Source of the DNA: a virus
IMG/VR virus record: IMGVR_UViG_3300049215_000256
Span: 1-27,385 of that record
Direction: 5' to 3' (one strand)
Length of the DNA stretch: 27,385 bases
The position numbers and the translations under genes were made by a program. The notes below the pieces were generated by a model, which saw nothing but the letters and a program-made list of their open reading frames with translations, was not told where the DNA came from and did no database searches. Positions 9,968-27,385 of the stretch are shown piece after piece; position 1 is the first letter of the stretch; each line of letters opens with the position of its first letter.

Positions 9968-10597
9968 TTACTCCCCCTTTTCCGCTGGTTGTGATTTCCA
10001 ATACTCTCTAAACAGTTCCTCTTGCGCTTTTCGTTCAGCATCCCCAGCAGCATTAGCAGCAGCATTAGCAGCAGCACAAACACCCCGCCAAGTAACGGCG
10101 CCGGCAACACCTCCAGCAGCATCCCAAATAACAGCACAAAGAGCAGCGCAAGCAGCATCCCAAGCACCCCAAACAATACCCCCAGCAGCTCTAGCAGCAG
10201 CTCTAGCAGCAAACCCAGCAGCCCCAACAACCCTAGCAGCATCTAAAGCAGCAACCCTAGGAGCATCTAATTCTTGTTGGGTAGCTTCCCCCACCGCGAA
10301 TTTACGCGCAACCGCAATAGCCTCGTGCGGACGGTTATCATTGGGGTAGTATTTTTCCCAAAACTGCAAGGCACGTTCTGCAAGCAAACAATTAAACAGC
10401 CTGATTTTACCGTCCATTTCTTTTGGCAAAACCCGCAAACACCAAAACGCATCCTCTAAACCGTTGCTATCTAAAATAGTTATTAAAGATAGCGGTTCAT
10501 CGTCGCACTTGGTTTTGCCTAAGTGTTTTAATAGCTTTAGCCATCCATCCGTGCAAGGTTGATGGGTCTTAATGTCTTTTAGGGTGATGGTAGTCAT
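9968..10597 (-). CDS. Ala-rich repeat protein of the 'putative immunity protein' type
   Basis: 209 aa, first gene after promoter P2 with the extended SD CCTCAGGAGG (10603-10612). Residues 1-105 are a folded N-terminal region: MTTITLKDIKTHQPCTDGW, then ITILDSNGLEDAFWCLRVLP. Residues ~115-195 are short Ala-rich pseudo-repeats with regularly spaced Arg, Trp, Asp and Gly (AARVVGAAGFAARAAARAAG), probably stacked short helices. The C-terminus (KAQEELFREYW) is charged. This architecture is shared by bacterial and phage proteins labelled putative immunity proteins; the molecular role is not established. It may be a moron-type gene acquired by the phage. Confidence 0.78.
   Translation of the reverse strand: MTTITLKDIKTHQPCTDGWLKLLKHLGKTKCDDEPLSLITILDSNGLEDAFWCLRVLPKEMDGKIRLFNCLLAERALQFWEKYYPNDNRPHEAIAVARKFAVGEATQQELDAPRVAALDAARVVGAAGFAARAAARAAGGIVWGAWDAACAALCAVIWDAAGGVAGAVTWRGVCAAANAAANAAGDAERKAQEELFREYWKSQPAEKGE
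10035..10265 (-). repeat. Low-complexity GC(T/A/C)-rich tract encoding the Ala repeats
   Basis: The plus strand shows many AGCAGC/TAGCAGC triplet runs. They encode Ala on the minus strand and create misleading Leu-rich and Ser/Pro-rich open frames in other readings. Such triplet-like DNA can expand or contract by slippage, so copy number may vary between isolates. Confidence 0.7.
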
Positions 10598-15825: not shown

Positions 15826-17286
15826 ATGGTCAAGAAGTCCGTAGCCCGCGTTGCTCAACGAGCACGTACAGAAGATAAAGCCCACCGCACCAGCGACAGT
15901 TTTCAAAACTGGATTGCGAAGTTAGGCTACGGCCAGAATAACCAACTGACCGCTAGCAATTACGTCTTTAATTATTTAACACGCAACCGTACGCAACTCG
16001 AAGCCATGTACCGCACAAACTGGCTGGTACGCGCGGCGGTCGACTCTGCTTCCGAAGACATGACGCAAGCAGGTATTTACTTCGAAGGTACTATCGCCCC
16101 AGACGATGCTGATTTGTTGCAGTCATCGATGATGGATTACCAAATTTGGCAACAACTCTGCGACACTATTCGGTGGAGCAGATTATTCGGCGGCTGTATT
16201 GCTGTGATGCTAATCGACGGGCAAGACGTCAACACGCCCTTGAATTTAGATAGCATCGGAGCGGGTTCGTTTAAAGGGTTATTAGTGCTTGACCGTTGGT
16301 TAGTGCAGCCTAACTTGTCTGACCTTGTTACTGATTACGGCCCCGATCTAGGCCACCCCAAATTTTATAACGTGATTTCCGACGCGCAAGCGTTAGCCAA
16401 TATGAACATCCACCACACTCGCGTGCTACGGATGGACGGCATGACGCTCCCGTACTACCAGAAATTAGTGGAAATGGGTTGGGGCGAGTCAATCCTGGAA
16501 GTATTCTACGATCGTCTACTGGCCTACGACTCTGCAACAATGGGCGCGGCGCAATTATTGTTTAAGTCACACTTACGCACATTAAAGATTGATCAATACC
16601 GCGATATCCTTTCTACCGGCGGCACAGCCTACACTGCGTTAATGCAACAAATTGAATTGTTGCGCCTAATGCAAACGAACGAAGGGATGACCGTTCTCGA
16701 TCTTACGGATGAGTTCGAAGTGCACCGGACGACGTTCGCAGGCATTGACGATATTCTACTGTCGTTCGCGCAACAGGTTTCTGGCTCATTACAAATTCCA
16801 CTAATTCGCTTGTTGGGGCAAAGCCCGGCTGGGTTAAACAGTTCAGGTGAAAGCGATTTAAGAACGTATTACGACAACGTCCGCAAAACACAAGAGCAAA
16901 AGTTGCGCCGCCCACTTACGCGGCTTTTAGACGTTATGGCGCGGTCGCTCGAGATTGAACTACCGGACGATTTCAGTTTCCATTTTAATCCGTTGTGGAT
17001 GTTGACGGAAACTGAGAAAGCAGAAATTGCTGCTAAAGACGCGACGACCGTTGGCACCGCGCTAGAAGGTAACATGATTAGCCAGGCAACTGCGCTTAAA
17101 GAATTGCGGCAACTCTCTAGAGTGAACGGGCGCTTTACAAACATCAGCGACAAAGATATTGCCGACGCTGACCAAGAAGTTCCGTCCGCCGAAGAAATGA
17201 TGCAAGCCATGAATCAGCCAGCTGAAGGCCAAAACCCAGATGAAGACAAAAAGCCAGTGGCAAAAGACAACCGTCGGAGAAGCTGA
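15826..17286 (+). CDS. Portal protein, DUF1073-type
   Basis: 486 aa. The pattern YRTNWLVRAAVDSASEDMTQAG near residues 62-83 is the signature of the DUF1073 family of phage portals. Further support is WSRLFGGCIAVMLIDGQD and the long helical segment around YDRLLAYDSATMGAAQLLF. The portal forms the dodecameric ring at one capsid vertex through which DNA enters, and binds the terminase. The C-terminus is acidic (PAEGQNPDEDKK) and overlaps the next gene by 47 bases. The Pfam family is linked by name to the anti-CBASS protein Acb1, but the Acb1 catalytic layout is not seen here. Confidence 0.88.
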   Translation: MVKKSVARVAQRARTEDKAHRTSDSFQNWIAKLGYGQNNQLTASNYVFNYLTRNRTQLEAMYRTNWLVRAAVDSASEDMTQAGIYFEGTIAPDDADLLQSSMMDYQIWQQLCDTIRWSRLFGGCIAVMLIDGQDVNTPLNLDSIGAGSFKGLLVLDRWLVQPNLSDLVTDYGPDLGHPKFYNVISDAQALANMNIHHTRVLRMDGMTLPYYQKLVEMGWGESILEVFYDRLLAYDSATMGAAQLLFKSHLRTLKIDQYRDILSTGGTAYTALMQQIELLRLMQTNEGMTVLDLTDEFEVHRTTFAGIDDILLSFAQQVSGSLQIPLIRLLGQSPAGLNSSGESDLRTYYDNVRKTQEQKLRRPLTRLLDVMARSLEIELPDDFSFHFNPLWMLTETEKAEIAAKDATTVGTALEGNMISQATALKELRQLSRVNGRFTNISDKDIADADQEVPSAEEMMQAMNQPAEGQNPDEDKKPVAKDNRRRS

Positions 17287-17965
17287 GTACGCGCGGGATC
17301 TACGTAGCATTGCCCGCGAAATTGGCAAACTTGTTAATCGGTATTCTCCCGGCGATATTTCTCAATTTCCTTTATTGCGTTATGCTTTAGAAAAGTACAG
17401 CGAACTGTTGCGGCCTTGGGCTGTTATGCGGGCGCAACGAATTATTGAACAAGCCAACGTGAGAAGCAAAAAAGTTTGGGCCAGTGTCTCTAAAGAAATG
17501 AGCGCCGGAATTAAACGAGAATTACAAACCACCCCCATCGGCGCTCGCGTACAGGAGTTAATGAATGAACAAGTTAAGCTTATCACCTCACTCCCTAAGG
17601 AAGCCGGAGAGCGAGTCCACAAGCTTGTACTTGAAAACGCTTCGCAAAGCAACAGGCCACCCGCGATCGCTAAAGAAATCGCCCGTTCCGGTGAAGTTGC
17701 CGCCTCACGTGCAACTCTTATTGCGCGAACCGAGGTATCACGGGTTGCTACGGTTCTTACTCAAGCTAGAGCCGAAAGCGTTGGATCAACCGGATACATC
17801 TGGCGAACCGCGCACGATGTTAATGTAAGGCCATCCCATAAAGTGATGGAAGGTAAATTTGTAGAATGGGGCGATCCCCCCACATTAGATGGATTAACTG
17901 GACATGCGGGCGCGTTGCCCAATTGCCGCTGCTACCCCGAACCCGTATTTCCAAAGGAACTTTAA
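17240..17965 (+). CDS. Minor head protein, Mu gpF-like
   Basis: 241 aa, overlapping the portal gene's end. Residues ~150-235 show the Phage_Mu_F signature: LIARTEVSRVATVLTQARAE, then WRTAHDVNVRPSHKVMEGK, and the C-terminal HAGALPNCRCYPEPV. The N-terminal half is helical (LREL-type segments such as RAQRIIEQANVRSKKVW). Mu F homologues are minor head components needed for morphogenesis and present in few copies. The start ATG 17240 has only a partial SD; coupling to the portal is likely. Confidence 0.9.
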   Translation: MKTKSQWQKTTVGEAEYARDLRSIAREIGKLVNRYSPGDISQFPLLRYALEKYSELLRPWAVMRAQRIIEQANVRSKKVWASVSKEMSAGIKRELQTTPIGARVQELMNEQVKLITSLPKEAGERVHKLVLENASQSNRPPAIAKEIARSGEVAASRATLIARTEVSRVATVLTQARAESVGSTGYIWRTAHDVNVRPSHKVMEGKFVEWGDPPTLDGLTGHAGALPNCRCYPEPVFPKEL

Positions 17966-18370
17966 ATGGCATCAAATCTTAAACCTTCGTTGGCTGCGGC
18001 TAACTTGCAATCTTCAACTTATGTTGGCGCTGTAACGAATAGCTCTACGCTGTCTATCTATTCCGGCACCCAACCTACTACGCCAGAAACGGCGGCTTCC
18101 GGCACTTTGCTAGCTACCGTTACGCTACCCGCGTCCGCTGCTATGACGTCAAACAATGGCGTTCTTACGGCGGCGGCGATTGCTAGCGTGACGATTGCAA
18201 CTTCTGGCGTCGCATCGTGGTTCCGGTGGGCTGAATCGGGCGGTTCTGTTGTGCTTGCGGATGGTTCGGTTGGTACGTCGGGTTCTGACATGAACTTGAA
18301 CTCTACCGCCTTGAGCTCTGGCGCTACATTGTCTATCACATCCTTCACCTATACGGTGCCTGGGTACTAG
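17966..18370 (+). CDS. Beta-rich phage structural protein (134 aa)
   Basis: Begins right after the Mu F-like stop with SD AAAGGA. The sequence TLSIYSGTQPTTPETAA, then GTLLATVTLP, ASWFRWAESG and a C-terminal GATLSITSFTYTVP fits a common uncharacterised phage family found near tail and head genes. It is Ser/Thr/Ala-rich and predicted all-beta, without a membrane segment. It could be a decoration or fibre-associated protein. It is the first gene of the ~8.3-kb block inserted in the head module. Confidence 0.8.
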   Translation: MASNLKPSLAAANLQSSTYVGAVTNSSTLSIYSGTQPTTPETAASGTLLATVTLPASAAMTSNNGVLTAAAIASVTIATSGVASWFRWAESGGSVVLADGSVGTSGSDMNLNSTALSSGATLSITSFTYTVPGY

Positions 18371-18373
18371 TAA

Positions 18374-18835
18374 ATGGCTCGTGTCCCGTCGTATGTTCAG
18401 GTTGCGCCGGATAGCACTGGTAAACTTATCAGCAATAGCCAGCTCGTCGATGCAAACAGCAACACTGTTCAACGACAAGTTGTATCGCTAGGCGATAGCG
18501 CAACTGAACCCAACATTGTTGCCGTTACTGGTGCGGGCTCGTTGCAAGTGGATGCGCGGGTGCCACAAACCCCCGGCTCGCCTACTTCTGCTACGGTGGG
18601 TACTTCTAGCGCGTCGATTTTAGCGGCCAATAGCTCCCGCACCGGTGCAGTGATTATCAACCTATCCACCAATACAGTTTCGCTGGGATTCGGGGTTGCT
18701 GCTGTACTAGGCAGCGGCATTACGCTTACGCAGAGCGGCAGCTTTACAATGGACGCGTTTTGTTTTTCTAAAGGCGCCGTTAACGCGATTGCTTCTGCCG
18801 CCGGCTCAGCGGTAAGCATTCAGGAATATTCATAA
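18374..18835 (+). CDS. Beta-rich phage structural protein (153 aa)
   Basis: Residues 1-60 carry an extended segment (VAPDSTGKLISNSQLVDAN). Residues ~70-153 resemble a widespread phage virion domain: TVGTSSASILAANSSRTGAV, then INLSTNTVSLGFGVAAVLG and ITLTQSGSFTMD. That domain is common among head/tail accessory proteins but has no agreed function. Its stop overlaps the next ATG by one base. Confidence 0.78.
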   Translation: MARVPSYVQVAPDSTGKLISNSQLVDANSNTVQRQVVSLGDSATEPNIVAVTGAGSLQVDARVPQTPGSPTSATVGTSSASILAANSSRTGAVIINLSTNTVSLGFGVAAVLGSGITLTQSGSFTMDAFCFSKGAVNAIASAAGSAVSIQEYS

Positions 18836-19170
18836 TGGCTGTTAACAACCCCGGCTTACCTTACTCGGGCGGTACTTTAATGGGGCCGCTTGTATTATCT
18901 GGCGATCCGCCTAATGCCAGTGTGGGCAACCCATTTCTTGCGGTCACTAAAGAATATGTAGACGCTGGGCCACTAGGAACAAAAACATTGACGTACACGA
19001 GTGGGCTGCTCACTGGTATTTCTTACCCTGACGGTAGCTCAAAAGCCCTGACGTACACTAGCGGCGTGCTGACACAAACAGTACTTACGCGCTCAGGGTA
19101 TAACACGGTAACTAAGAATTTTAATTACACGTCTGGAGTATTGAGCAGTATAGTGGTGAGCTCGCCATGA
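18835..19170 (+). CDS. Tail-fibre-like short repeat protein (111 aa)
   Basis: The N-terminus (YSGGTLMGPLVLSGDPPNAS, then LAVTKEYVDAG) is the phage fibre motif 'GGTMxGPLxLxGDP...A..KxYVDA', seen in many fibre stalks. It is followed by three short repeats with the core YTSG(L/V)L: LTYTSGLLTGISYPDG, LTYTSGVLTQTVL and FNYTSGVLSSIVV. The protein ends there without a receptor-binding tip, so it may be a fibre adaptor that trimerises with the next gene product. The stop overlaps the next start as ATGA. Confidence 0.8.
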   Translation: MAVNNPGLPYSGGTLMGPLVLSGDPPNASVGNPFLAVTKEYVDAGPLGTKTLTYTSGLLTGISYPDGSSKALTYTSGVLTQTVLTRSGYNTVTKNFNYTSGVLSSIVVSSP

Positions 19171-22100
19171 CGATTAGCTATAGCGGAACCGCTGGCGCCT
19201 CTGGCGCAACAATTTACATTACTGGCAGTGAAACGCTTGCCACACTCAAAACGTCATTGGCATCCAATACGTCTTGGGCGACGGTTAACGGCAGTACAAT
19301 AACTTTTAATGCCAGCTTGTCTATTGGTAACGGTACGACTACTGGAAATTTTACCGCTGCTGATTGCGTATTGGATTTTCCGCAAGCTTACACGTTTACG
19401 GTTCCAAACAATTCGGCTCAATCAGGAAGCGCGACAACGCTATCAGACACCGCGATTATTTTCGATGGTTCTGCTAAAAGCTATAGTAATGCGATTAACT
19501 ATGGCACGCACACGTGGACTCGCGTTGTTTACCGCAGCCAGATAACAACCCCACGTAACGACCTTTTTCAAAACACAGGTTGTATTTTCGTATTTAATAA
19601 CGTGCAGCTTGCGGTGAGTTCAACTGCCACTTCATATCCGTATGACTTTATCCACGTTTACAGCAATACCACTGGCACGCTGCAAGGATTGACCATCACA
19701 GGACTAGGCGGCGCGGGTTCTGCCAACAGCGTTGAAATTGGTTCCGCAACCGGAACCACGACAACGCTTCAAGGCTTAACAATCGGCGGAAACTTTGGCG
19801 CGATTACGCTGAACAACGGCGGTACGAGCTACGGTGGTACGCAAGATTTTAGAGCATTAAGCTGGCCCCTTAACACCACTTGGACATTTAACTACGGTTC
19901 GGGCGGAGGTACGGCTTATATCACCAACCCAAATAAACCTTCAGGTTGGACAGGTTATGCGTTTTTGGCTGGCGGCGCTGGCGGCTCAGGAAATATTATT
20001 GAACGCTACACGCACGACATTACCGCCGTTAATAGTTCGGCGACTGGCATTGTTGGTGTTAACTCAGGTGATTTTAGAAGCGGCGCTTTTGTCTGGGCAG
20101 CAACATCAAGCACTGGCGGGGTTACGCCAACCCAATATGTAACAACAGCAACGCTTACGGGCGCATACCCCGGCACCCTGACCAATTATTCTACCAGCGT
20201 CACGACTGCCGCGTGGCTCTATGGCTACAACACGTTCGTGGGCGGTAGAACCTACACGCCAACTGGCGTGGGCATTACGGACACCATCTTGATGGTGGCT
20301 GATGTCACGACGCTGTCTCAATCAGCAGTAGGTGCTTTAACCTCGCTTGCCACTTTAGATAATTTATATGATGCGTCACGTTATTGGAACACGCTAAACT
20401 CTACCAATATTCAAATTCCTGCCCTCGGCACGAATATTATTACTTATTCGGGTTCGCAATTAAACCTCGGCACTTACAATTTAATTATCAATTCCGGCAC
20501 GACCACGGCGGGTAACGCTTTCAGTGTGTCCGGCAGCACGATTACGATTTACGCGAGCAATTTAGCCACAGGCACAAAGTTCACTTCGTTCACCACGACT
20601 GGCACTGTGACGGTAAATAGCGGTGTGACTGTTACGGTTCCTTATGCAGGTTCAGGCGGTACGCAAGGCGTACTAACGCTTAATAACTTGCAAACACTGT
20701 CAACGATCTATGTGGCCACGTCGCAAGGCGGTACGCAGTTAGCCTACACAGCACTGACTGGCAGCAATACGAGCTACACGCTTTATATTCCGCCCAACTC
20801 AGCAACATCTTATTATTATAAAGTTGTCAAATATGGTTATCAACCTTCCACGGGGACATTCAATCCAACCGCAGTGACTGCTGTGACAGTCGCACAAGCA
20901 GTTGACACGAGCATCACGCAATCAACCGTAGCAACGGTTGCCGCCTACACAGCACTTGCAAATCCAGATCAAATTTATGATTACGCTGCTTACTATGAAA
21001 CGACTAACGCGGGGATTGTGTTTACGAGGCTCAATTTAGCAGCGGGTAAAAACCTGTCATTTGGCAGTAGCATTCTTGCGCTTAACACAGCAGCAAGTTC
21101 AGTTTATAGTATTTCAGGCACAACCGCGACGATTAAGACAGCGGCCACCGTAACAACGGGCGCCACGTTCACATCTTTCGGCACTACTGGTTCGCTCACC
21201 AATTCAGGCTCGACAATTCAGTGCGTGTACACAACAAGCGTGGGTACGTCGACGGTTGTTACAATTACGAATTTACCTTACACGTCCGCTAACGGCGGCA
21301 GCTACGTTTCGTTATTAAATAACAGCAATGCTCAAGTGCAATACGTGGGGCCGATTATTTCTGGCTCCACTGTACTCTACATTGCTCCCGGAGGAGCACT
21401 TAGCTATTCGGTTAAAATAGCTTGCTACACTTTCAATTCTGCGACTAGCGGGTTTACGACGCAAGGTTATGTTAGCGTTACTGCTTCTTTGGGGACTGAT
21501 ACAGGCATCACGCAGGGAACAGTGGCTACCGTAGCCGGTTATGGAAGTTTTTCTAGTCCCGACCAGATTTACGATTATCTAGCGTATTGGGAAACAACGA
21601 ATAATACGGGCGGCATTACTGTTACGCGCCCCGCAACGAAAAACGGGACGCAAGTTTCTTTTGGCAATAATAACGTAACGCTGAACGCCACTGCTGCTAA
21701 TGCCTACGTCTACACTGCTGGGACACCAAACGCTTTAGCGGTTAAAGTTACAACCCTTGCGGCCGGGGTTTCGTATCTTACGTTCGCTACCTCGGGCACG
21801 GTAACGCTTTCGAATGGCGCGACGATTACTTGCGTGTACACGTCTAACGTAGGTACGTCTTCGGTGCTTGTGTTGACGGGCGTTGTTGCGGGTTCAGCCG
21901 TGTATATTCAAAACGCTAGCGCGGCACAACAATCTTTTGTTACGGGCCAAAGCGGAACGTATTCTTACCCGCTTCCGCCCGGCGCTTCCGCTGGAACTTG
22001 GAAGTGGGCAACAAAGGCATTAGGCTATACAGGCGTTGTAGGTTCTTACGCGCCCAGCGGCGGCGGTACGTTTACAGCAGCAGCTACCGGAACGCAAAAA

Positions 22101-22589
22101 ATTAACCCGGACGGCAGCGTAGCGTATCAAGGCTCAACCAGTTCGTTGGTGAGCACGAGCTTTACGGGCTTAACGGAAGCCGACATTATTATTGGCAACG
22201 GCGCAATCAGTGTTCAAAATGCTTTTGACGCTTCAGAAACGGCGCTTGTCACTGCAGCTGGGTTGGCTTGGTTAGCGGGCGGCCTAGGAGAGCTGACGGA
22301 GTATAACTCGTTCGACGGAAACTTCTTATTCATGACGCACAATTGGCGGTTGAAAGCGTTAAACACTTCTTCCGGTAACGCGACTTTATACGGCTTCCCT
22401 ATTTCTGCCGACGGCAACCCGATTAACACAACAAACGGTAACATCATTATTGCGTCGAACACCACGGCTCAACAATTGGTGGCTGCGTTACTAGCGGCCT
22501 CGACTTCGACTTACAATACAGTGGGCACCGTCGGCCAGAGTTTTAATTATATAAACAACACCGCCCCTTTAATCCCAGCCCTGGTTTAG
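19167..22589 (+). CDS. Large fibre/adhesin-like protein (1140 aa) with three ~200-aa modules
   Basis: A Ser/Thr/Gly-rich, nearly Lys-free, all-beta protein, typical of phage fibres or adhesins. Residues ~1-395 look like a right-handed beta-helix (IYSN-like turns, repeated TLQGLTI(T/G)G). Residues from about 398, 601 and 799 begin three related modules: DNLYDASRYWNT, DQIYDYAAYYETT and DQIYDYLAYWETT. Each module is followed by a beta-sandwich segment with TFTSFGTTGS-type strands and, in modules 2 and 3, VGTS. The C-terminus (~1000-1140) is a helical plus beta domain: GNGAISVQNAFDASETALV, then FLFMTHNWRLKAL. No enzymatic motif is visible. It probably binds a surface ligand. It lies in the head module, so it may be a head fibre or a relocated tail fibre. 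Confidence 0.75.
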   Translation: MTISYSGTAGASGATIYITGSETLATLKTSLASNTSWATVNGSTITFNASLSIGNGTTTGNFTAADCVLDFPQAYTFTVPNNSAQSGSATTLSDTAIIFDGSAKSYSNAINYGTHTWTRVVYRSQITTPRNDLFQNTGCIFVFNNVQLAVSSTATSYPYDFIHVYSNTTGTLQGLTITGLGGAGSANSVEIGSATGTTTTLQGLTIGGNFGAITLNNGGTSYGGTQDFRALSWPLNTTWTFNYGSGGGTAYITNPNKPSGWTGYAFLAGGAGGSGNIIERYTHDITAVNSSATGIVGVNSGDFRSGAFVWAATSSTGGVTPTQYVTTATLTGAYPGTLTNYSTSVTTAAWLYGYNTFVGGRTYTPTGVGITDTILMVADVTTLSQSAVGALTSLATLDNLYDASRYWNTLNSTNIQIPALGTNIITYSGSQLNLGTYNLIINSGTTTAGNAFSVSGSTITIYASNLATGTKFTSFTTTGTVTVNSGVTVTVPYAGSGGTQGVLTLNNLQTLSTIYVATSQGGTQLAYTALTGSNTSYTLYIPPNSATSYYYKVVKYGYQPSTGTFNPTAVTAVTVAQAVDTSITQSTVATVAAYTALANPDQIYDYAAYYETTNAGIVFTRLNLAAGKNLSFGSSILALNTAASSVYSISGTTATIKTAATVTTGATFTSFGTTGSLTNSGSTIQCVYTTSVGTSTVVTITNLPYTSANGGSYVSLLNNSNAQVQYVGPIISGSTVLYIAPGGALSYSVKIACYTFNSATSGFTTQGYVSVTASLGTDTGITQGTVATVAGYGSFSSPDQIYDYLAYWETTNNTGGITVTRPATKNGTQVSFGNNNVTLNATAANAYVYTAGTPNALAVKVTTLAAGVSYLTFATSGTVTLSNGATITCVYTSNVGTSSVLVLTGVVAGSAVYIQNASAAQQSFVTGQSGTYSYPLPPGASAGTWKWATKALGYTGVVGSYAPSGGGTFTAAATGTQKINPDGSVAYQGSTSSLVSTSFTGLTEADIIIGNGAISVQNAFDASETALVTAAGLAWLAGGLGELTEYNSFDGNFLFMTHNWRLKALNTSSGNATLYGFPISADGNPINTTNGNIIIASNTTAQQLVAALLAASTSTYNTVGTVGQSFNYINNTAPLIPALV
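20358..22160 (+). repeat. Three ~600-base modules within the 1140-aa gene
   Basis: The IYDY-type entry motif recurs at 20358, 20967 and 21561, giving spacings of 609 and 594 bases. Modules 2 and 3 are closer to each other than to module 1. The arrangement points to duplication of an adhesin module and could support domain swapping between phages. Confidence 0.6.
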
Positions 22590-22613: not shown

Positions 22614-24347
22614 GTGCTTCTTGACCTCCTTTCGCGTTACTTTACCAGTAACAGCTTTACTGGTTCCGTAGCTACTACGCAGGGAAAGAATGCGATTGCG
22701 CTAGCCAGCGCCGAAGTATTCACGGGCTCTATTAGTGTTACGCAAGCCAGTAACACAATTGCGGTTAGTGACGTTGAAGGTTTTGCGGGAAGCGTTAATG
22801 CTGCCCAGCCAAGTAATGTTTCGGGCGTGCTGGCTGCTGAATCTTTTTCAGGTTCCGTAGCTGTTGCGCAAAATGTTAACAAGATTTCTATAAGTGACGC
22901 TGAAAATTTCTCTGGAGCAATTTCAGCTACCCAGAATACGAATACGATTGTTGTTGGTGGTGTTGAGGTCGTCCTAGGGGCAAGTGCAACTACTCAGAGC
23001 GGGAACGCTGCGGCTATTACCGTCTCTGAGGTTTTTTCTGCTAGTCTAGCTTTAAGCCAGTCCGCCAATACAACGTCTATTGCAGACGTAGAGAGTTATT
23101 TGGGGGCTGTAGCGGCTACCCAAGTCGTAAACGCTTTAAATGCGTCTGCAACTGAAAATTTTAGCGTTTCTATAGCTGTTTCACAGCAAATTAACAAGAT
23201 TTCGGTTGTTGACAACGAAAATTACGCGGGTTCAATAAGCGCCGCGCAAGGTGCAAATACTGCTGTTTTAGCCTCTTTAGAGACGTTTACAGGAGCCTTG
23301 GCGCTCGTACAACCGGGTAACGGGGTTAATTTAGTAGGGTTAGAAGCTTATGCGGGTTATGCAGCAGCTGTACAGCCCGTAAACACGACTTCGGTGACCG
23401 ATGCCGAAAGCTTTATAGCATCGGCTACCGTAACCCAAGGCGGCAACGCTGCTGCTATCGCTGGCGCCGGGGCGTACACCGGCTCCGTAGCTACCGCGCA
23501 ACCCGGTAACGCTGTAGCAGCTACAGGTGCTGAAAGTTTTAGCGGCGCGGCTACTTTTGCCCAAGGGGTGAATGCAGCGGCGATAATTGATTCCGAAGTA
23601 TTTTCGGTTTCGTTCAATCCGCTTCAGCCGGGCAACGCAATTGGGCTAGCAGGGGCGGAAAGCTTTACCGCGACGGTAGCAGCGAGCCAAGGCGTTAACC
23701 AAGCCAGCGCGACCGCCGCTGAATCGTTTACAAGTTCAATAGCAGCCGCTCAGAGTAAGAACGTCCTCGCAATTACAGATGCCGAAATAGTCAGCGGCGC
23801 GGTTAATTTAACGCAGGGCGTAAATGCTGCTGGGTTAGTAGGTAGAGAGCTGGTTGCGGGTTCGCTAGCAGTTACGCAGTCGAGCAACGTAATCAGTGTT
23901 TCTGGCTCGCTACCTTATACGGCCAGCATCGCCGTGACGCAAAATAAGAACGTTGCTATCAGCAGCACGAATGAATTGTTTTCTGGCGCGGCAACTGCGG
24001 CACAAGTAAGCAACCAAATTTCAATTACGGACATTGAGGGTTTTGTTGGGGTCGTCGCGGTAACGCAAGGCACTAACGTCATAACACTCGTTGGGCTTGA
24101 AAACTTTAACAGCTCAATTACTGCGGCGCAACCGATTGATAAGTTTTCCGCGTACTTGCGGATGCCTGTGATTAAAGGATACGTTACGTTATCCGCTAAA
24201 TTGGTTAATGATGCAACAGTAGAAGGGACAGCTGTTGCGCTGGCTACGTTAGATGAAGAGCTTGTTAACACAGCTCAAATTGACGCAAGTACCGCAGCCA
24301 CCCGCTATCTTAAGAATAAATACACCAACACGAATCAAGCCGCCTAA
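22614..24347 (+). CDS. 21-residue-repeat structural protein A (577 aa, 24 repeats)
   Basis: GTG start with SD AGGAG seven bases upstream. After a 14-residue lead the protein consists of 23 exact 21-residue repeats plus a 24th partial copy (residues 15-~518). Each unit has an aromatic, usually Phe/Tyr, at position 1, small residues at 3-4, Gln at 9, Asn at 12, alternating hydrophobics around 14-16 and mostly Glu at 20. Example start of a unit: FTGSISVTQASNTIAV. The C-terminal ~60 residues (MPVIKGYVTLSAKLVND...) differ and resemble the end of the next protein. The pattern predicts a regular beta-solenoid or fibrous rod. It recalls curlin repeats but the Gln-Asn spacing is different. I recognise no named family. 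A virion fibre or surface rod is likely; proof is lacking. Confidence 0.8.
   Translation: MLLDLLSRYFTSNSFTGSVATTQGKNAIALASAEVFTGSISVTQASNTIAVSDVEGFAGSVNAAQPSNVSGVLAAESFSGSVAVAQNVNKISISDAENFSGAISATQNTNTIVVGGVEVVLGASATTQSGNAAAITVSEVFSASLALSQSANTTSIADVESYLGAVAATQVVNALNASATENFSVSIAVSQQINKISVVDNENYAGSISAAQGANTAVLASLETFTGALALVQPGNGVNLVGLEAYAGYAAAVQPVNTTSVTDAESFIASATVTQGGNAAAIAGAGAYTGSVATAQPGNAVAATGAESFSGAATFAQGVNAAAIIDSEVFSVSFNPLQPGNAIGLAGAESFTATVAASQGVNQASATAAESFTSSIAAAQSKNVLAITDAEIVSGAVNLTQGVNAAGLVGRELVAGSLAVTQSSNVISVSGSLPYTASIAVTQNKNVAISSTNELFSGAATAAQVSNQISITDIEGFVGVVAVTQGTNVITLVGLENFNSSITAAQPIDKFSAYLRMPVIKGYVTLSAKLVNDATVEGTAVALATLDEELVNTAQIDASTAATRYLKNKYTNTNQAA
22656..24167 (+). repeat. 24 tandem 63-bp coding repeats (21 aa each)
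   Basis: The first Phe codon is at 22656 and the 24th at 24105, exactly 23 x 63 bases apart, so no indel disturbs the phase. The DNA is strongly diverged between copies while the key residues are kept, so protein-level selection rather than recent slippage explains the array. Confidence 0.9.
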
Positions 24348-24359
24348 GGAGTATCACAA

Positions 24360-25994
24360 GTGTCGTACTCATTATTACAGCGGGCAAGTAACAGTGGCTC
24401 TACCAACACTTTAGTCTTAACACTATCTGCTACTGCAGCTGGCAGTTTGATTACCATCCACGGTGGCGCGAACGGCTCGAGCGCTGTTAGCTCTATCACG
24501 GATAACAAAAGTAATACATATACTTTAGCCACTTCACTTTCTTCTGGCTATGTTTACTATTGTCCGAATGCCACTGCTGGTGTTACGACGATTACCATTA
24601 CTTATACGTCGAGCCAAGGTTCTGTGGCTATCGCGAGTGAGTATTCAGGGATCTTAGGGACAAGTCCTTTAGATGTTCATGCAAATACAAGTTTAGGTTC
24701 TAATACTACTACACCAACATCTGCTAATTTTACACCAACAAGTTCTCCAGAACTTTGCATTGTTTTTCACTACGCATCTGGAAACGCTTTTACTTCTGTC
24801 ACAGCGGGAACTGGGTATAGTAATGCTGCTTTTAAGAATAGCTCTGCATTAGGTAATCGGGCTGTTGCGGTTGAAGATTGCGAGTTAACGACTACAAATA
24901 CGACTAATGGGGGCTTTACAGTTTCCCCTACTAGTCAGGCTACCAGTTATATGTTTGTTACAACTTTTAAAGAAGTTGTTCCAGCCACTGGTTCAATCGC
25001 GACTACGCAAGGCGTAAACACTACCGCGATTGCGGGTGTGTCTTTTGTTGGTTCGGTAGCGGCTGCCCAAAGTAAAAACACTATTGCGATTTCAGAAAGT
25101 GAATCTTTTTCTGCTACAATCGCTACTACGCAAGCCGTTAATACAGCTAGCGCCGTGGGCGCGGAAGTGTTTAGCGCCAGTTTAGCGGACGTTCAGAGTG
25201 TAGACAGTACTGCTATTGCTGGCACTTTTACCGCCAGTATTTCTGGTTCAATTGCGACGACACAGTCGGCGAATACAATTGTTGTTAGTGGGGCTGAAGC
25301 TTTTAACGCGAGCTTGTCTGCAACCCAAAACGCGAATACAGTTACTTTAGCCGGTAACGAGGCATTCGCCGCCACCGTAGCTGTCACGCAACCTATAAAC
25401 GCTTTCGTTGTAGCCGGGGCAGAAAGTTTTAGCGGAAGTGCGACTTTAACACAAGGTATTGACAGTGCGGCTATTACTGATGCCGAAGTATTTGCCGGCT
25501 CGCTAGGGCTAGGCCAAGGTGCTAACACTGTTGCGATAAGCGCGTTACAAAATTACACAGGCTCAATAGCGGTAACGCAAAGCGGCAATGTTATTACGCT
25601 TAGTGCAAATGAATCTTACGCGGGTGCGGTATCTACTACACAACCTAAAAACGCGGCCAATATTGTAAGCGCGGAAATATTTGCGGCGGCGGCGGCTTTA
25701 AGTCAAGCACTGAATCAAATTCAGGTTATCGACGCTGAATTTTTTACAACCCTCGTTGGGCTATTCCAACACGGGAATATCGCAGCAATCGTTGGGCAAC
25801 AAGCGATTGTCGGCGCGGTTTCACTAGAACAGCCGCTTAACCAGCTTGTTGCAGCCGGGATGGTGCTCGCCGAAAGTGGCTATGCTATGTTAACGGCGAG
25901 CCTAGTTAATGCGGCGCTAGTAAATGCTACACTGGAAAACCCAGCCGCAACGAGTGTAAAAGCAGTGAACACAATTACAGTACTGGCCAGCTAG
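24360..25994 (+). CDS. 21-residue-repeat structural protein B (544 aa, 14 repeats)
   Basis: GTG start with SD AAGGAG. Residues 1-205 form a beta-sandwich-like head (SLITIHGGANGSSAVSSITD, then VAIASEYSGILG and FVTTFKEVVP), a domain found in various phage and bacterial adhesin-like proteins. Residues ~209-503 hold 14 units of the same 21-residue repeat as protein A, with slight length changes in units 1 and 4 (20 and 23 residues). The C-terminus (GYAMLTASLVNAALVNATL) is related to that of protein A. A distinct N-terminal head on a shared rod suggests the two proteins form one fibre, or that head domains are swapped on a common stalk. Confidence 0.8.
   Translation: MSYSLLQRASNSGSTNTLVLTLSATAAGSLITIHGGANGSSAVSSITDNKSNTYTLATSLSSGYVYYCPNATAGVTTITITYTSSQGSVAIASEYSGILGTSPLDVHANTSLGSNTTTPTSANFTPTSSPELCIVFHYASGNAFTSVTAGTGYSNAAFKNSSALGNRAVAVEDCELTTTNTTNGGFTVSPTSQATSYMFVTTFKEVVPATGSIATTQGVNTTAIAGVSFVGSVAAAQSKNTIAISESESFSATIATTQAVNTASAVGAEVFSASLADVQSVDSTAIAGTFTASISGSIATTQSANTIVVSGAEAFNASLSATQNANTVTLAGNEAFAATVAVTQPINAFVVAGAESFSGSATLTQGIDSAAITDAEVFAGSLGLGQGANTVAISALQNYTGSIAVTQSGNVITLSANESYAGAVSTTQPKNAANIVSAEIFAAAAALSQALNQIQVIDAEFFTTLVGLFQHGNIAAIVGQQAIVGAVSLEQPLNQLVAAGMVLAESGYAMLTASLVNAALVNATLENPAATSVKAVNTITVLAS
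24984..25868 (+). repeat. 14 tandem ~63-bp coding repeats in protein B
   Basis: Unit starts include 25044, 25107, 25170, 25239, 25302 and then every 63 bases to 25806. Unit 4 is 69 bases, the first is 60. The Q9/N12/E20 pattern is shared with protein A, though N12 is Asp in units 4 and 8. Confidence 0.85.
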
Positions 25995-26002
25995 AGGATT
26001 AA

Positions 26003-26308
26003 ATGATTACGCACTTTCTGTTAGGAAATCTTGTTAGACTTTCGGCTACGTTTGTTAACGCAGCGGGCGCTCCGGTTGATCCTGGGTTTATTATACTCAC
26101 GATTAAGCTGCCCGATTGCTCAACAGAAACTCTAACTTACGCCAACGGCGACATTATAAAAGATGGCATTGGGCTGTATCATTACGATTTTTTGACCACC
26201 GAAGCTGGACTGCACTATTATTTATACGACGCCACCGGGGACGTAATCGCGGCTTCTCAAGGACAATTTGCCGTTGACCCTGTCAACACGTTGGATTGCG
26301 CATGCTAG
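26003..26308 (+). CDS. Small Ig-like structural protein (101 aa)
   Basis: The start ATG 26003 follows SD AGAGGA. The sequence has the layout of a common phage Ig-like or carbohydrate-binding accessory domain: FLLGNLVRLSATFVNAAGAP, VDPGFIILTIKLP, then KDGIGLYHYDFLTTEAGLHY and SQGQFAVDP. All-beta, no membrane segment. It overlaps the protease start by seven bases and may decorate the virion. Confidence 0.8.
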   Translation: MITHFLLGNLVRLSATFVNAAGAPVDPGFIILTIKLPDCSTETLTYANGDIIKDGIGLYHYDFLTTEAGLHYYLYDATGDVIAASQGQFAVDPVNTLDCAC

Positions 26309-27385
26309 TGGCTTCTGTAAAAACAAAACGACGTTCTACACTAACGCATGACCGCAGTTACCATGTAGTAGAAACATTGGGCAAGTCTCGTGGGTTGACA
26401 AAAGAAGGTTTTCTTCTTTGCCGCGACGTGCCGATTGCACGCATTGGCACTTTACTTTACGGAGAAGGCGAAACCCCAATAGAAGCTGGTAAAGATGGCA
26501 TCAGCCATATTAACCGTGAAGAAGACGAAGTATTTCGCCCAGAAACTTTAGCCTCGTTTGAGGGTAAGCCCGTCACGCTCCAGCATCCTGACGAAGAAGT
26601 TGGGCCCGAAAATTTTAAAGAGCATGTTGTCGGCGTTGTACAAAATGTACGCCGAGGAACCGGAATAGACGATCATTTAGTGATCGCAGATCTCCTTATA
26701 CAAGATAAGGAAGCCATAGATGCCGTCCGCGAGGGCAAATACCGTGAAGTATCCTGTGGATACGACGCGGACTATGAGCAAACAGGGCCTGGTCGCGGAA
26801 GGCAGTTAAACATCATTGGGAATCACGTTGCATTGGTCGATCAAGGCAGATGCGGCTCCCAGTGTGCCATCCAAGACAGGAGAACTATAATGGCAAAAGG
26901 AAAACTGAGCGTGGCTGACCGCATTATGAAAGCGTTCAAAGCACGTGATGAAAAAGAACTCGAAAAGGCAATGGAAGATGCAGACTTGTCTCCGTCTGAT
27001 GAAGGCGAAGACAAAGACGGCGACACGCACGTCCATGTCCACTTAAACAGTGGCGCGGGCGGTGCTAAAGTCATGTCTGACGAAAAAGAAGACGAGAAAA
27101 AAGAAAAAGTTGAAGACGACAGCCCAGACGACATGCACGGTTGCTTAAAGCGCATCGAAGCAATGTTGACTAAAATGGCAGGAGGCACTGGCGATGAAGA
27201 CTACGAAGGTAAAGAGAAAAAGGTTGAAGGTGGAGAAGTTGACGACCAAGAGTACCAAGAAGGCGAAGTCTACGATGCCGAAGAAGAGGAAGAAGACAAG
27301 CCTAAGAAGAAAACAGAAGACAAAAAATCTGTTGTTCAAGATGTTAAAGCGCGTCTTGAAATTCTTTCGCCCGGCTTCAGAATGC
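26302..27385 (+). CDS. DUF2213 prohead protease with C-terminal scaffold region (3' end missing)
   Basis: The open frame runs from ATG 26302 to the window edge (361 codons seen). Residues ~70-190 match DUF2213 head-maturation proteases: EVFRPETLASFEGKPVT, LQHPDEEVG, VSCGYDADYE and GNHVALVDQGRCG. The His in QHP, the Ser in EVSCG and the His in GNHVAL are candidate catalytic residues. From residue ~197 the sequence becomes very Glu/Asp/Lys-rich (KEDEKKEKVEDD; DAEEEEEDKPKKK), as in scaffolds. An internal start lies at 26890. The protease should trim scaffold and capsid during maturation. The major capsid gene is expected next. Confidence 0.9.
   Translation, partial: MLVASVKTKRRSTLTHDRSYHVVETLGKSRGLTKEGFLLCRDVPIARIGTLLYGEGETPIEAGKDGISHINREEDEVFRPETLASFEGKPVTLQHPDEEVGPENFKEHVVGVVQNVRRGTGIDDHLVIADLLIQDKEAIDAVREGKYREVSCGYDADYEQTGPGRGRQLNIIGNHVALVDQGRCGSQCAIQDRRTIMAKGKLSVADRIMKAFKARDEKELEKAMEDADLSPSDEGEDKDGDTHVHVHLNSGAGGAKVMSDEKEDEKKEKVEDDSPDDMHGCLKRIEAMLTKMAGGTGDEDYEGKEKKVEGGEVDDQEYQEGEVYDAEEEEEDKPKKKTEDKKSVVQDVKARLEILSPGFRM
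26890..27385 (+). CDS. Nested scaffold protein, internal in-frame start (3' end missing)
   Basis: ATG 26890 is in frame with the protease (196 codons downstream) and has AGGAG (26878-26882) with a 7-base spacer, a near-ideal initiation site. The product would start MAKGKLSVADRIMKAFKARD and consist of the acidic, helical C-terminal region. This copies the lambda C/Nu3 logic, where a scaffold is made from an internal start inside the protease gene. Not proven, but the strength of the site argues against chance. Confidence 0.6.
   Translation, partial: MAKGKLSVADRIMKAFKARDEKELEKAMEDADLSPSDEGEDKDGDTHVHVHLNSGAGGAKVMSDEKEDEKKEKVEDDSPDDMHGCLKRIEAMLTKMAGGTGDEDYEGKEKKVEGGEVDDQEYQEGEVYDAEEEEEDKPKKKTEDKKSVVQDVKARLEILSPGFRM

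What the first reader, a model, noticed from the sequence alone, without database searches (positions are those of the whole stretch)
22614..25994. Twin proteins built from 38 copies of one 21-residue repeat: possibly a new structural rod
Protein A has 24 units in perfect register (23 x 63 bases) and protein B has 14, sharing aromatic-1, Gln-9, Asn-12 and Glu-20, plus related C-termini. Protein B adds a separate N-terminal head. The regular Q/N ladders suggest a beta-solenoid with stacked amide side chains, as in curli or ice-binding proteins, but the spacing fits neither. DNA divergence between units shows the pattern is under selection.
Basis: partly seen in the sequence, partly recalled or inferred. 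Interest (0 to 1): 0.7.

Follow-up and report, generated by a model that had tools for sequence, protein, structure and literature searches.

The report
Widespread phage fibre-shaft repeat, Q/N variant
Two neighbouring genes of an uncultured phage encode proteins made mostly of a 21-residue repeat; the repeat belongs to a very widespread but unnamed family, is predicted to fold into a beta-helical rod, and is encoded with a relative of a protein seen wrapped around tail fibres, so these are probably shafts of the phage's host-attachment fibres.

Summary
Protein A (22614-24347) has 24 units of exactly 63 bp; protein B (24360-25994) has a 207-residue head and 14 units. They are not an isolated oddity. 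DNA pattern scans found the same repeat, (V/I/F)-T-G-S-x-A-x-T-Q-x-x-N-T, in many viral contigs, and a TExxD version in many more. Pfam has no model for it and the one matching PHROG has no function. A and B match profiles of both versions better than all 300 column-permuted controls. The repeat genes sit near one small gene, present in the window at 17966-18370, in 27 of 37 Q/N-type and 56 of 90 E/D-type loci, against 4 of 83 pattern-only controls. That gene is homologous to gp014 of Agrobacterium phage 7-7-1, the 'garland' protein seen by cryo-EM around the tail fibres (PDB 9RKV). AlphaFold2 models (pLDDT 71 and 62) give two strands per unit; structure comparison returns mainly beta-solenoids. 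In relatives the same repeats carry glycine-rich heads, a B-type head or an apiosidase-like enzyme domain. Best explanation: rigid beta-solenoid shafts of virion host-attachment fibres. Fold, virion location (tail or capsid) and partner contact are not shown.

The parts
22614..24347 (+). Protein A (577 aa, GTG start): 14-residue N-terminus, 24 repeat units, C-terminal region
22656..24167 (+). 24 units of 21 residues (63 bp) in perfect register
   Evidence: predicted two strands per unit
24168..24347 (+). C-terminal region of A, related to that of B
24360..25994 (+). Protein B (544 aa, GTG start); AAGGAG overlaps the stop of A, 12 bp gap
24360..24980 (+). Head of B (207 aa), a module shared with other phage proteins (L169, L102, L227, L239 and others)
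   Evidence: tblastn; profile built without B finds B at E 1e-29, best shuffle 2.7
24981..25868 (+). 14 repeat units of B; exact 21-residue spacing from 25239 on
25869..25994 (+). C-terminal region of B
17966..18370 (+). Garland-type gene (phrog_3758, 134 aa), the conserved neighbour of this repeat family
   Evidence: homologue of phage 7-7-1 gp014, PDB 9RKV
18374..18835 (+). 153-aa protein with YVQVAPDSTG start; homologues precede the SETVTLADTL repeat gene in L044
18835..19170 (+). 111-aa protein with a GGTLMGPLVLSGDP...TKEYVD motif as in many tail fibres (motif from knowledge; no Pfam match)
19167..22589 (+). 1140-aa protein of the same cassette, no family match
26003..26308 (+). 101-aa protein between B and the protease
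   Evidence: phrog_18294, E 0.008
15826..17965 (+). Portal (15826-17286) and gpF-like head protein (17240-17965), upstream border of the cassette
26296..27385 (+). Head maturation protease (runs off the window), downstream border of the cassette

Best explanation
A and B are shafts of virion host-attachment fibres. Shown: both are built from 21-residue units of a widespread phage repeat family, and their operon carries a garland-type gene. Inferred: each unit forms one coil of a beta-solenoid, with a strand at residues 1-8, a turn at Q-x-x-N (9-12), a second strand at 13-18 and a turn at 18-21. Equivalent residues of successive coils then stack into Q9, N12 and E20 ladders. At 0.48 nm per coil A would be about 12 nm and B about 7 nm long, so unit number sets shaft length. 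B's head is a terminal module. The related C-termini of A and B probably share one docking or assembly partner. The garland-type protein would tie these fibres to each other or to the tail-fibre complex, as 7-7-1 gp014 dimers do around the short and long tail fibres.
For: Position in the virion structural operon between gpF and head protease. Repeat-family membership by profile with column-permuted controls, 0 of 300 for A and B. Garland-type gene near repeat genes in 27/37 and 56/90 loci against 4/83, always on the same strand (Fisher 1.5e-13). Its homology to 7-7-1 gp014 in PDB 9RKV, E 1e-10 by single sequence and 1e-13 by profile (PMC12796354). Milano garland proteins have the fold of tail-fibre-network connectors (PMC10811340). 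Relatives join the same repeats to glycine-rich, B-type or apiosidase-like domains. In isolated phages the garland-type gene lies among tail or tail-fibre genes. Beta-solenoid models.
Against: No virion proteomics for any TQ/TExxD repeat protein was found. Model confidence is only moderate and Foldseek gives no PDB match at E 0.001. In the window the garland-type gene is 4.2 kb and three genes upstream of A, further than usual. The cassette lies among head genes. Contact between the two proteins is untested.
Confidence: 0.62

Rival explanations
1. Capsid fibres: A and B decorate the head, not the tail, as fibres that touch the host or its appendages.
For: The cassette lies between gpF and the head protease, as in Curvibacter phage P26059A. 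L346 has terminase, garland-type gene, repeats, then portal.
Against: In 7-7-1 the garland and long tail fibre genes also lie beside the terminase small subunit, away from the baseplate genes, yet the products are in the baseplate. In Vibrio phage CKB-S1, Caulobacter phage Seuss and mycobacteriophages the garland-type gene is among tail genes.
Confidence: 0.2
2. Fibre shaft with another fold: a homotrimeric intertwined beta-shaft such as a triple beta-spiral, not a monomeric solenoid.
For: Most phage fibre shafts are trimers (knowledge). Two strands per unit with turns at fixed positions suit both folds. Monomer predictions cannot show trimers.
Against: Both independent models give coils that superpose on beta-helices, e.g. 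3lyc and 3p4g at Z about 15 and rmsd 2.0-2.1 over 153-155 residues, though such Z values are common for repeats.
Confidence: 0.3
3. Flexible, mostly disordered low-complexity linkers without a fixed fold.
For: Ala/Ser/Thr-rich composition; model pLDDT 62-71; no solved homologue.
Against: Exact 21-residue periodicity without indels over 24 units and conserved Q9/N12, G3 and hydrophobic positions in A and in many relatives. No residue segment under pLDDT 50.
Confidence: 0.08
4. Secreted or cell-surface functional-amyloid or adhesin made during infection, not part of the virion.
For: Q/N-rich repeats; the CsgA fibril is among the structure matches (Z 12.2 but rmsd 8.7).
Against: The genes lie in the virion structural operon, and family members recur beside virion structural genes. 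No signal-peptide-like start is seen by inspection.
Confidence: 0.05

Closest known systems
Unnamed 21-residue TExxD/TQxxN phage repeat proteins (phrog_38872, function unknown; e.g. Curvibacter phage P26059A gp07, ASJ79159.1)
   Same: 21-residue period, [ST]-[QE]-x-x-[ND] turn, G3, T8 and G/A18 columns, garland-type gene nearby, position before the head protease in P26059A
   Different: Window units use Q9/N12 with an aromatic at 1 and E at 20; most relatives use E9/D12, V/I at 1 and V at 20
L169 ORF (IMG/VR contig; L169:3167-5053)
   Same: Same architecture as B: B-type head followed by TQxxNT units
   Different: More, and more uniform, units; a different C-terminus
Garland protein gp014 of Agrobacterium phage 7-7-1 (PDB 9RKV) and gp125/gp127 of Milano
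   Same: Homologous to the window's 17966-18370 product
   Different: Their tail-fibre partners (gp015 and Milano tailspike) are beta-helical or jelly-roll fibres, not 21-residue repeat proteins
Curli CsgA
   Same: Short beta-repeats with Q/N ladders; among structure matches
   Different: 22-residue units with other Q/N spacing and own secretion system (knowledge); no sequence match
Ice-binding beta-helix protein MpAFP (PDB 3p4g)
   Same: Model superposes on its beta-helix: Z 14.7, rmsd 2.0 over 155 residues
   Different: No sequence similarity found; a shared fold shows no function

Membership tests
TExxD/TQxxN 21-residue phage repeat family | Tandem units of exactly 21 residues | tested here: met
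   24 of 24 spacings in A; B from unit 5 on
TExxD/TQxxN 21-residue phage repeat family | Columns other than the Q/E and N/D anchors match the family | tested here: met
   0 of 300 column-permuted controls reach A or B, against Q/N and (recoded) E/D profiles; without recoding the E/D profile is not significant
TExxD/TQxxN 21-residue phage repeat family | phrog_3758 garland-type gene in the same operon | tested here: met
   17966-18370, same strand, 4.2 kb upstream
TExxD/TQxxN 21-residue phage repeat family | Protein is part of the virion | not testable with these tools
   needs virion proteomics
Garland protein family (for 17966-18370) | Sequence homology to 7-7-1 gp014 | tested here: met
   E 1e-10 to 9rkv_A by single sequence, 1.3e-13 by profile
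Garland protein family (for 17966-18370) | Homodimers around tail fibres in the baseplate | not testable with these tools
   known for 7-7-1 only (PMC12796354)
Curli (CsgA) | 22-residue curlin repeat with its Q/N spacing | tested here: not met
   period is 21 and Q to N spacing 3; no Pfam family matches A
Ice-binding beta-helix proteins | Sequence homology to a solved member | tested here: not met
   no PDB sequence match by single sequence or 46-row profile
Beta-solenoid fold | One coil per repeat with in-register stacking of coils | tested here: inconclusive
   AlphaFold2 pLDDT 71 and 62; VIA-align best rows mainly beta-helices; Foldseek finds no PDB hit at E 0.001

The most novel reading that the evidence does not exclude
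The 21-residue TQ/TExxD repeat with its garland-type partner gene is an undescribed, modular fibre-shaft system used by many uncultured tailed phages, in which a beta-solenoid rod of adjustable length joins interchangeable tips (glycine-rich, B-type, glycoside hydrolase) to a garland or connector network.
Probability: 0.4. Interest if true: 0.65.

Novelty: new variant of a known kind. Interest (0 to 1): 0.5.

Why it matters
Linking it to a solved garland protein gives a concrete, testable role and would let hypothetical proteins in many phage genomes be annotated as fibre shafts.

Tried and rejected
tblastn of A and B against 50,697 phage records: no match. Protein-based scan with A in viral contigs: no relative; a spaced DNA pattern was needed. 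Pfam and PHROGs on A and B: nothing significant. 'Chance Q..N spacing' rejected: 83 other loci with the same spacing (collagen-like GQTGNNGPQG, TSQQLNVSG and others) fail the repeat filter and rarely carry the garland-type gene. Reversed TExxD proteins also score against the Q/N profile, so that test was replaced by the column-permutation test. Without recoding Q9/N12, an E/D-only profile does not detect A or B. Mycobacteriophage Charlie gp22 and Send513 gp32 (minor tail proteins) have best period 21 near a garland-type homologue, but their units do not match the profile, and Send513 gp32 resembles the B head only weakly (E 0.59): left as analogy. A combined head-plus-repeat alignment was unusable, so the B head was not folded. 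The capped PDB sequence search with a three-row head profile gave only chance matches. Literature searches for a 21-residue phage repeat found none.

Full report
Observation. A (22614-24347) contains 24 units of exactly 21 residues; B (24360-25994) contains a 207-residue head and 14 units, the first four with small register slips. The period is far above shuffles. Key residues use both synonymous codons and third positions are nearly randomised, so the pattern is kept by selection.

Genome context. The window is an IMG/VR fragment of a tailed phage: helicase, exonuclease, polymerase and primase on the minus strand, then antiterminator, terminase, portal, gpF, fibre cassette and head protease on the plus strand. 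In Bordetella phage vB_BaM-IFTN9 and Burkholderia phage Magia, gpF directly abuts the protease. The window has 8.3 kb of extra genes in that gap: garland-type gene (p3758), 153 aa, 111 aa, 1140 aa, A, B, 101 aa. The closest protease relative, L006, has a GDSL-hydrolase-like protein in the same gap. Curvibacter phage P26059A has p3758, another gene and a 21-residue repeat gene before its protease.

Relatives. Twenty-three of the listed ORFs match the A/B profile, with consensus V-S-G-S-x-A-S-T-Q-A-x-N-T-S-S-A-S-G-x-V-x. The E..D equivalent also hit its limit and is almost entirely TEAxDT-type 21-residue repeats. L168 has both kinds of unit in one protein. In a test that does not use the A/B profile for selection, profiles from loci chosen for carrying p3758 score A and B above 300 of 300 controls that keep Q9/N12 and permute the other columns. 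For the E/D profile, Q9/N12 were recoded to E/D in test and controls alike, as a scoring device only. A profile from pattern loci without p3758 is weaker: 2 and 10 of 300 controls reach the full score of A and B. Without recoding, the E/D profile is not significant. So the Q/N link is firm; the E/D link is good but rests on the recoded test and on L168.

The partner gene. The window's 17966-18370 product belongs to phrog_3758, 'virion structural protein'. Its homologues accompany repeat genes in 25 of 33 loci against 6 of 87 others (Fisher p 1.5e-13). With a repeat definition independent of the A/B profile the counts are 27/37 and 56/90, against 4/83 for pattern-only loci of the Q..N scan and 1/80 for protease-selected contigs, the one being L081, which itself has the repeat. 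In the E..D scan 13 of 30 loci failing the filter also carry it; several of those are still TExxD-like by their consensus. All pairs are on one strand, 75 with the garland-type gene upstream and 8 downstream. A profile matches PDB 9RKV and 44NX. 9RKV is the tail-fibre model of Agrobacterium phage 7-7-1. The homologue in that phage is F406_gp014, described as the garland protein: 36 homodimers around the distal baseplate, touching the middle and C-terminal parts of short and long tail fibres (PMC12796354). The garland proteins of phage Milano have the fold of T4 gp8 and A511 gp105, connectors of the tail-fibre network (PMC10811340).

Architecture in relatives. Repeats follow glycine-rich domains (PF21722; L105, L120, L156), another shared head (L107, L128, L138), or B-type heads (L169). 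In L239 one ORF directly after the garland-type gene holds a B-type head, TExxD units and an apiosidase-like catalytic domain (PF13204, E 4e-13). In L102 the repeats flank a region ending in the same partner domain (PF12904). This is the layout of a shaft with exchangeable functional tips.

Fold. AlphaFold2 on 8 units (7 rows) and on 6 units (46 ungapped rows, alignment A10) gave pLDDT 70.8 and 62.1, with strands at about 1-8 and 13-18 of each unit. The best VIA-align rows for both are mainly beta-helices, including adhesins and phage tailspikes; Z values of this size are common for repeats. Foldseek found no PDB hit at E 0.001 and one in BFVD (A0A5Q2WAR1, 4.6e-4, TM 0.65), plus a lower-ranked Bcep22 virion-associated protein (probability 0.98, TM 0.58). 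The solenoid is therefore favoured, not shown.

Conclusion. A and B are most likely fibre shafts of the host-attachment apparatus, a Q/N variant of a widespread unnamed repeat family that travels with a garland-type gene. Whether they sit on tail or capsid is open. In 7-7-1 the garland and tail-fibre genes also lie beside packaging genes, so gene position does not decide.

Noticed in passing
L044:15270-16202: A different repeat (SETVTLADTLTR type, about 18-22 residues) joined to a C-terminal Pfam PF23148 Gp77 fiber-tail adaptor domain, downstream of a homologue of the window's 153-aa protein.
   Followed up: partly
L239:7878-10796 and L102:5981-9670: 21-residue repeats combined with an apiosidase-like catalytic domain and/or its PF12904 partner domain in one phage protein: a likely virion-borne glycoside hydrolase.
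   Followed up: partly
L118, L123, L159, L171, L180: Another 21-residue repeat, TSTTNLTSQQLNVSGITTLGI, in proteins of up to 1850 aa, found by the Q..N pattern but not matching the A/B family.
   Followed up: no
L117, L122, L133, L136, L143, L158, L174: Collagen-like repeats with a fixed GQTGNNGPQG unit every 21 residues.
   Followed up: no
L107, L128, L130, L138, L139, L151 (C-termini of the repeat proteins): C-terminal VPAExRxFxV-type motif, repeated several times in L139; possibly a docking signal.
   Followed up: no
window 19167-22589: The 1140-aa protein has internally repeated stretches (NPDQIYDYAAYYETTN and similar) and no family match.
   Followed up: no
window 10045-10076 and 10183-10211: Two short arrays of a 12-bp unit (CAGCAGCATTAG and CAGCAGCTCTAG) inside the minus-strand ORF 9968-10597.
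   Followed up: no
L168:1050-4070: One 1007-aa protein mixes TExxD and TQxxN units, suggesting the acid and amide forms interconvert easily.
   Followed up: partly
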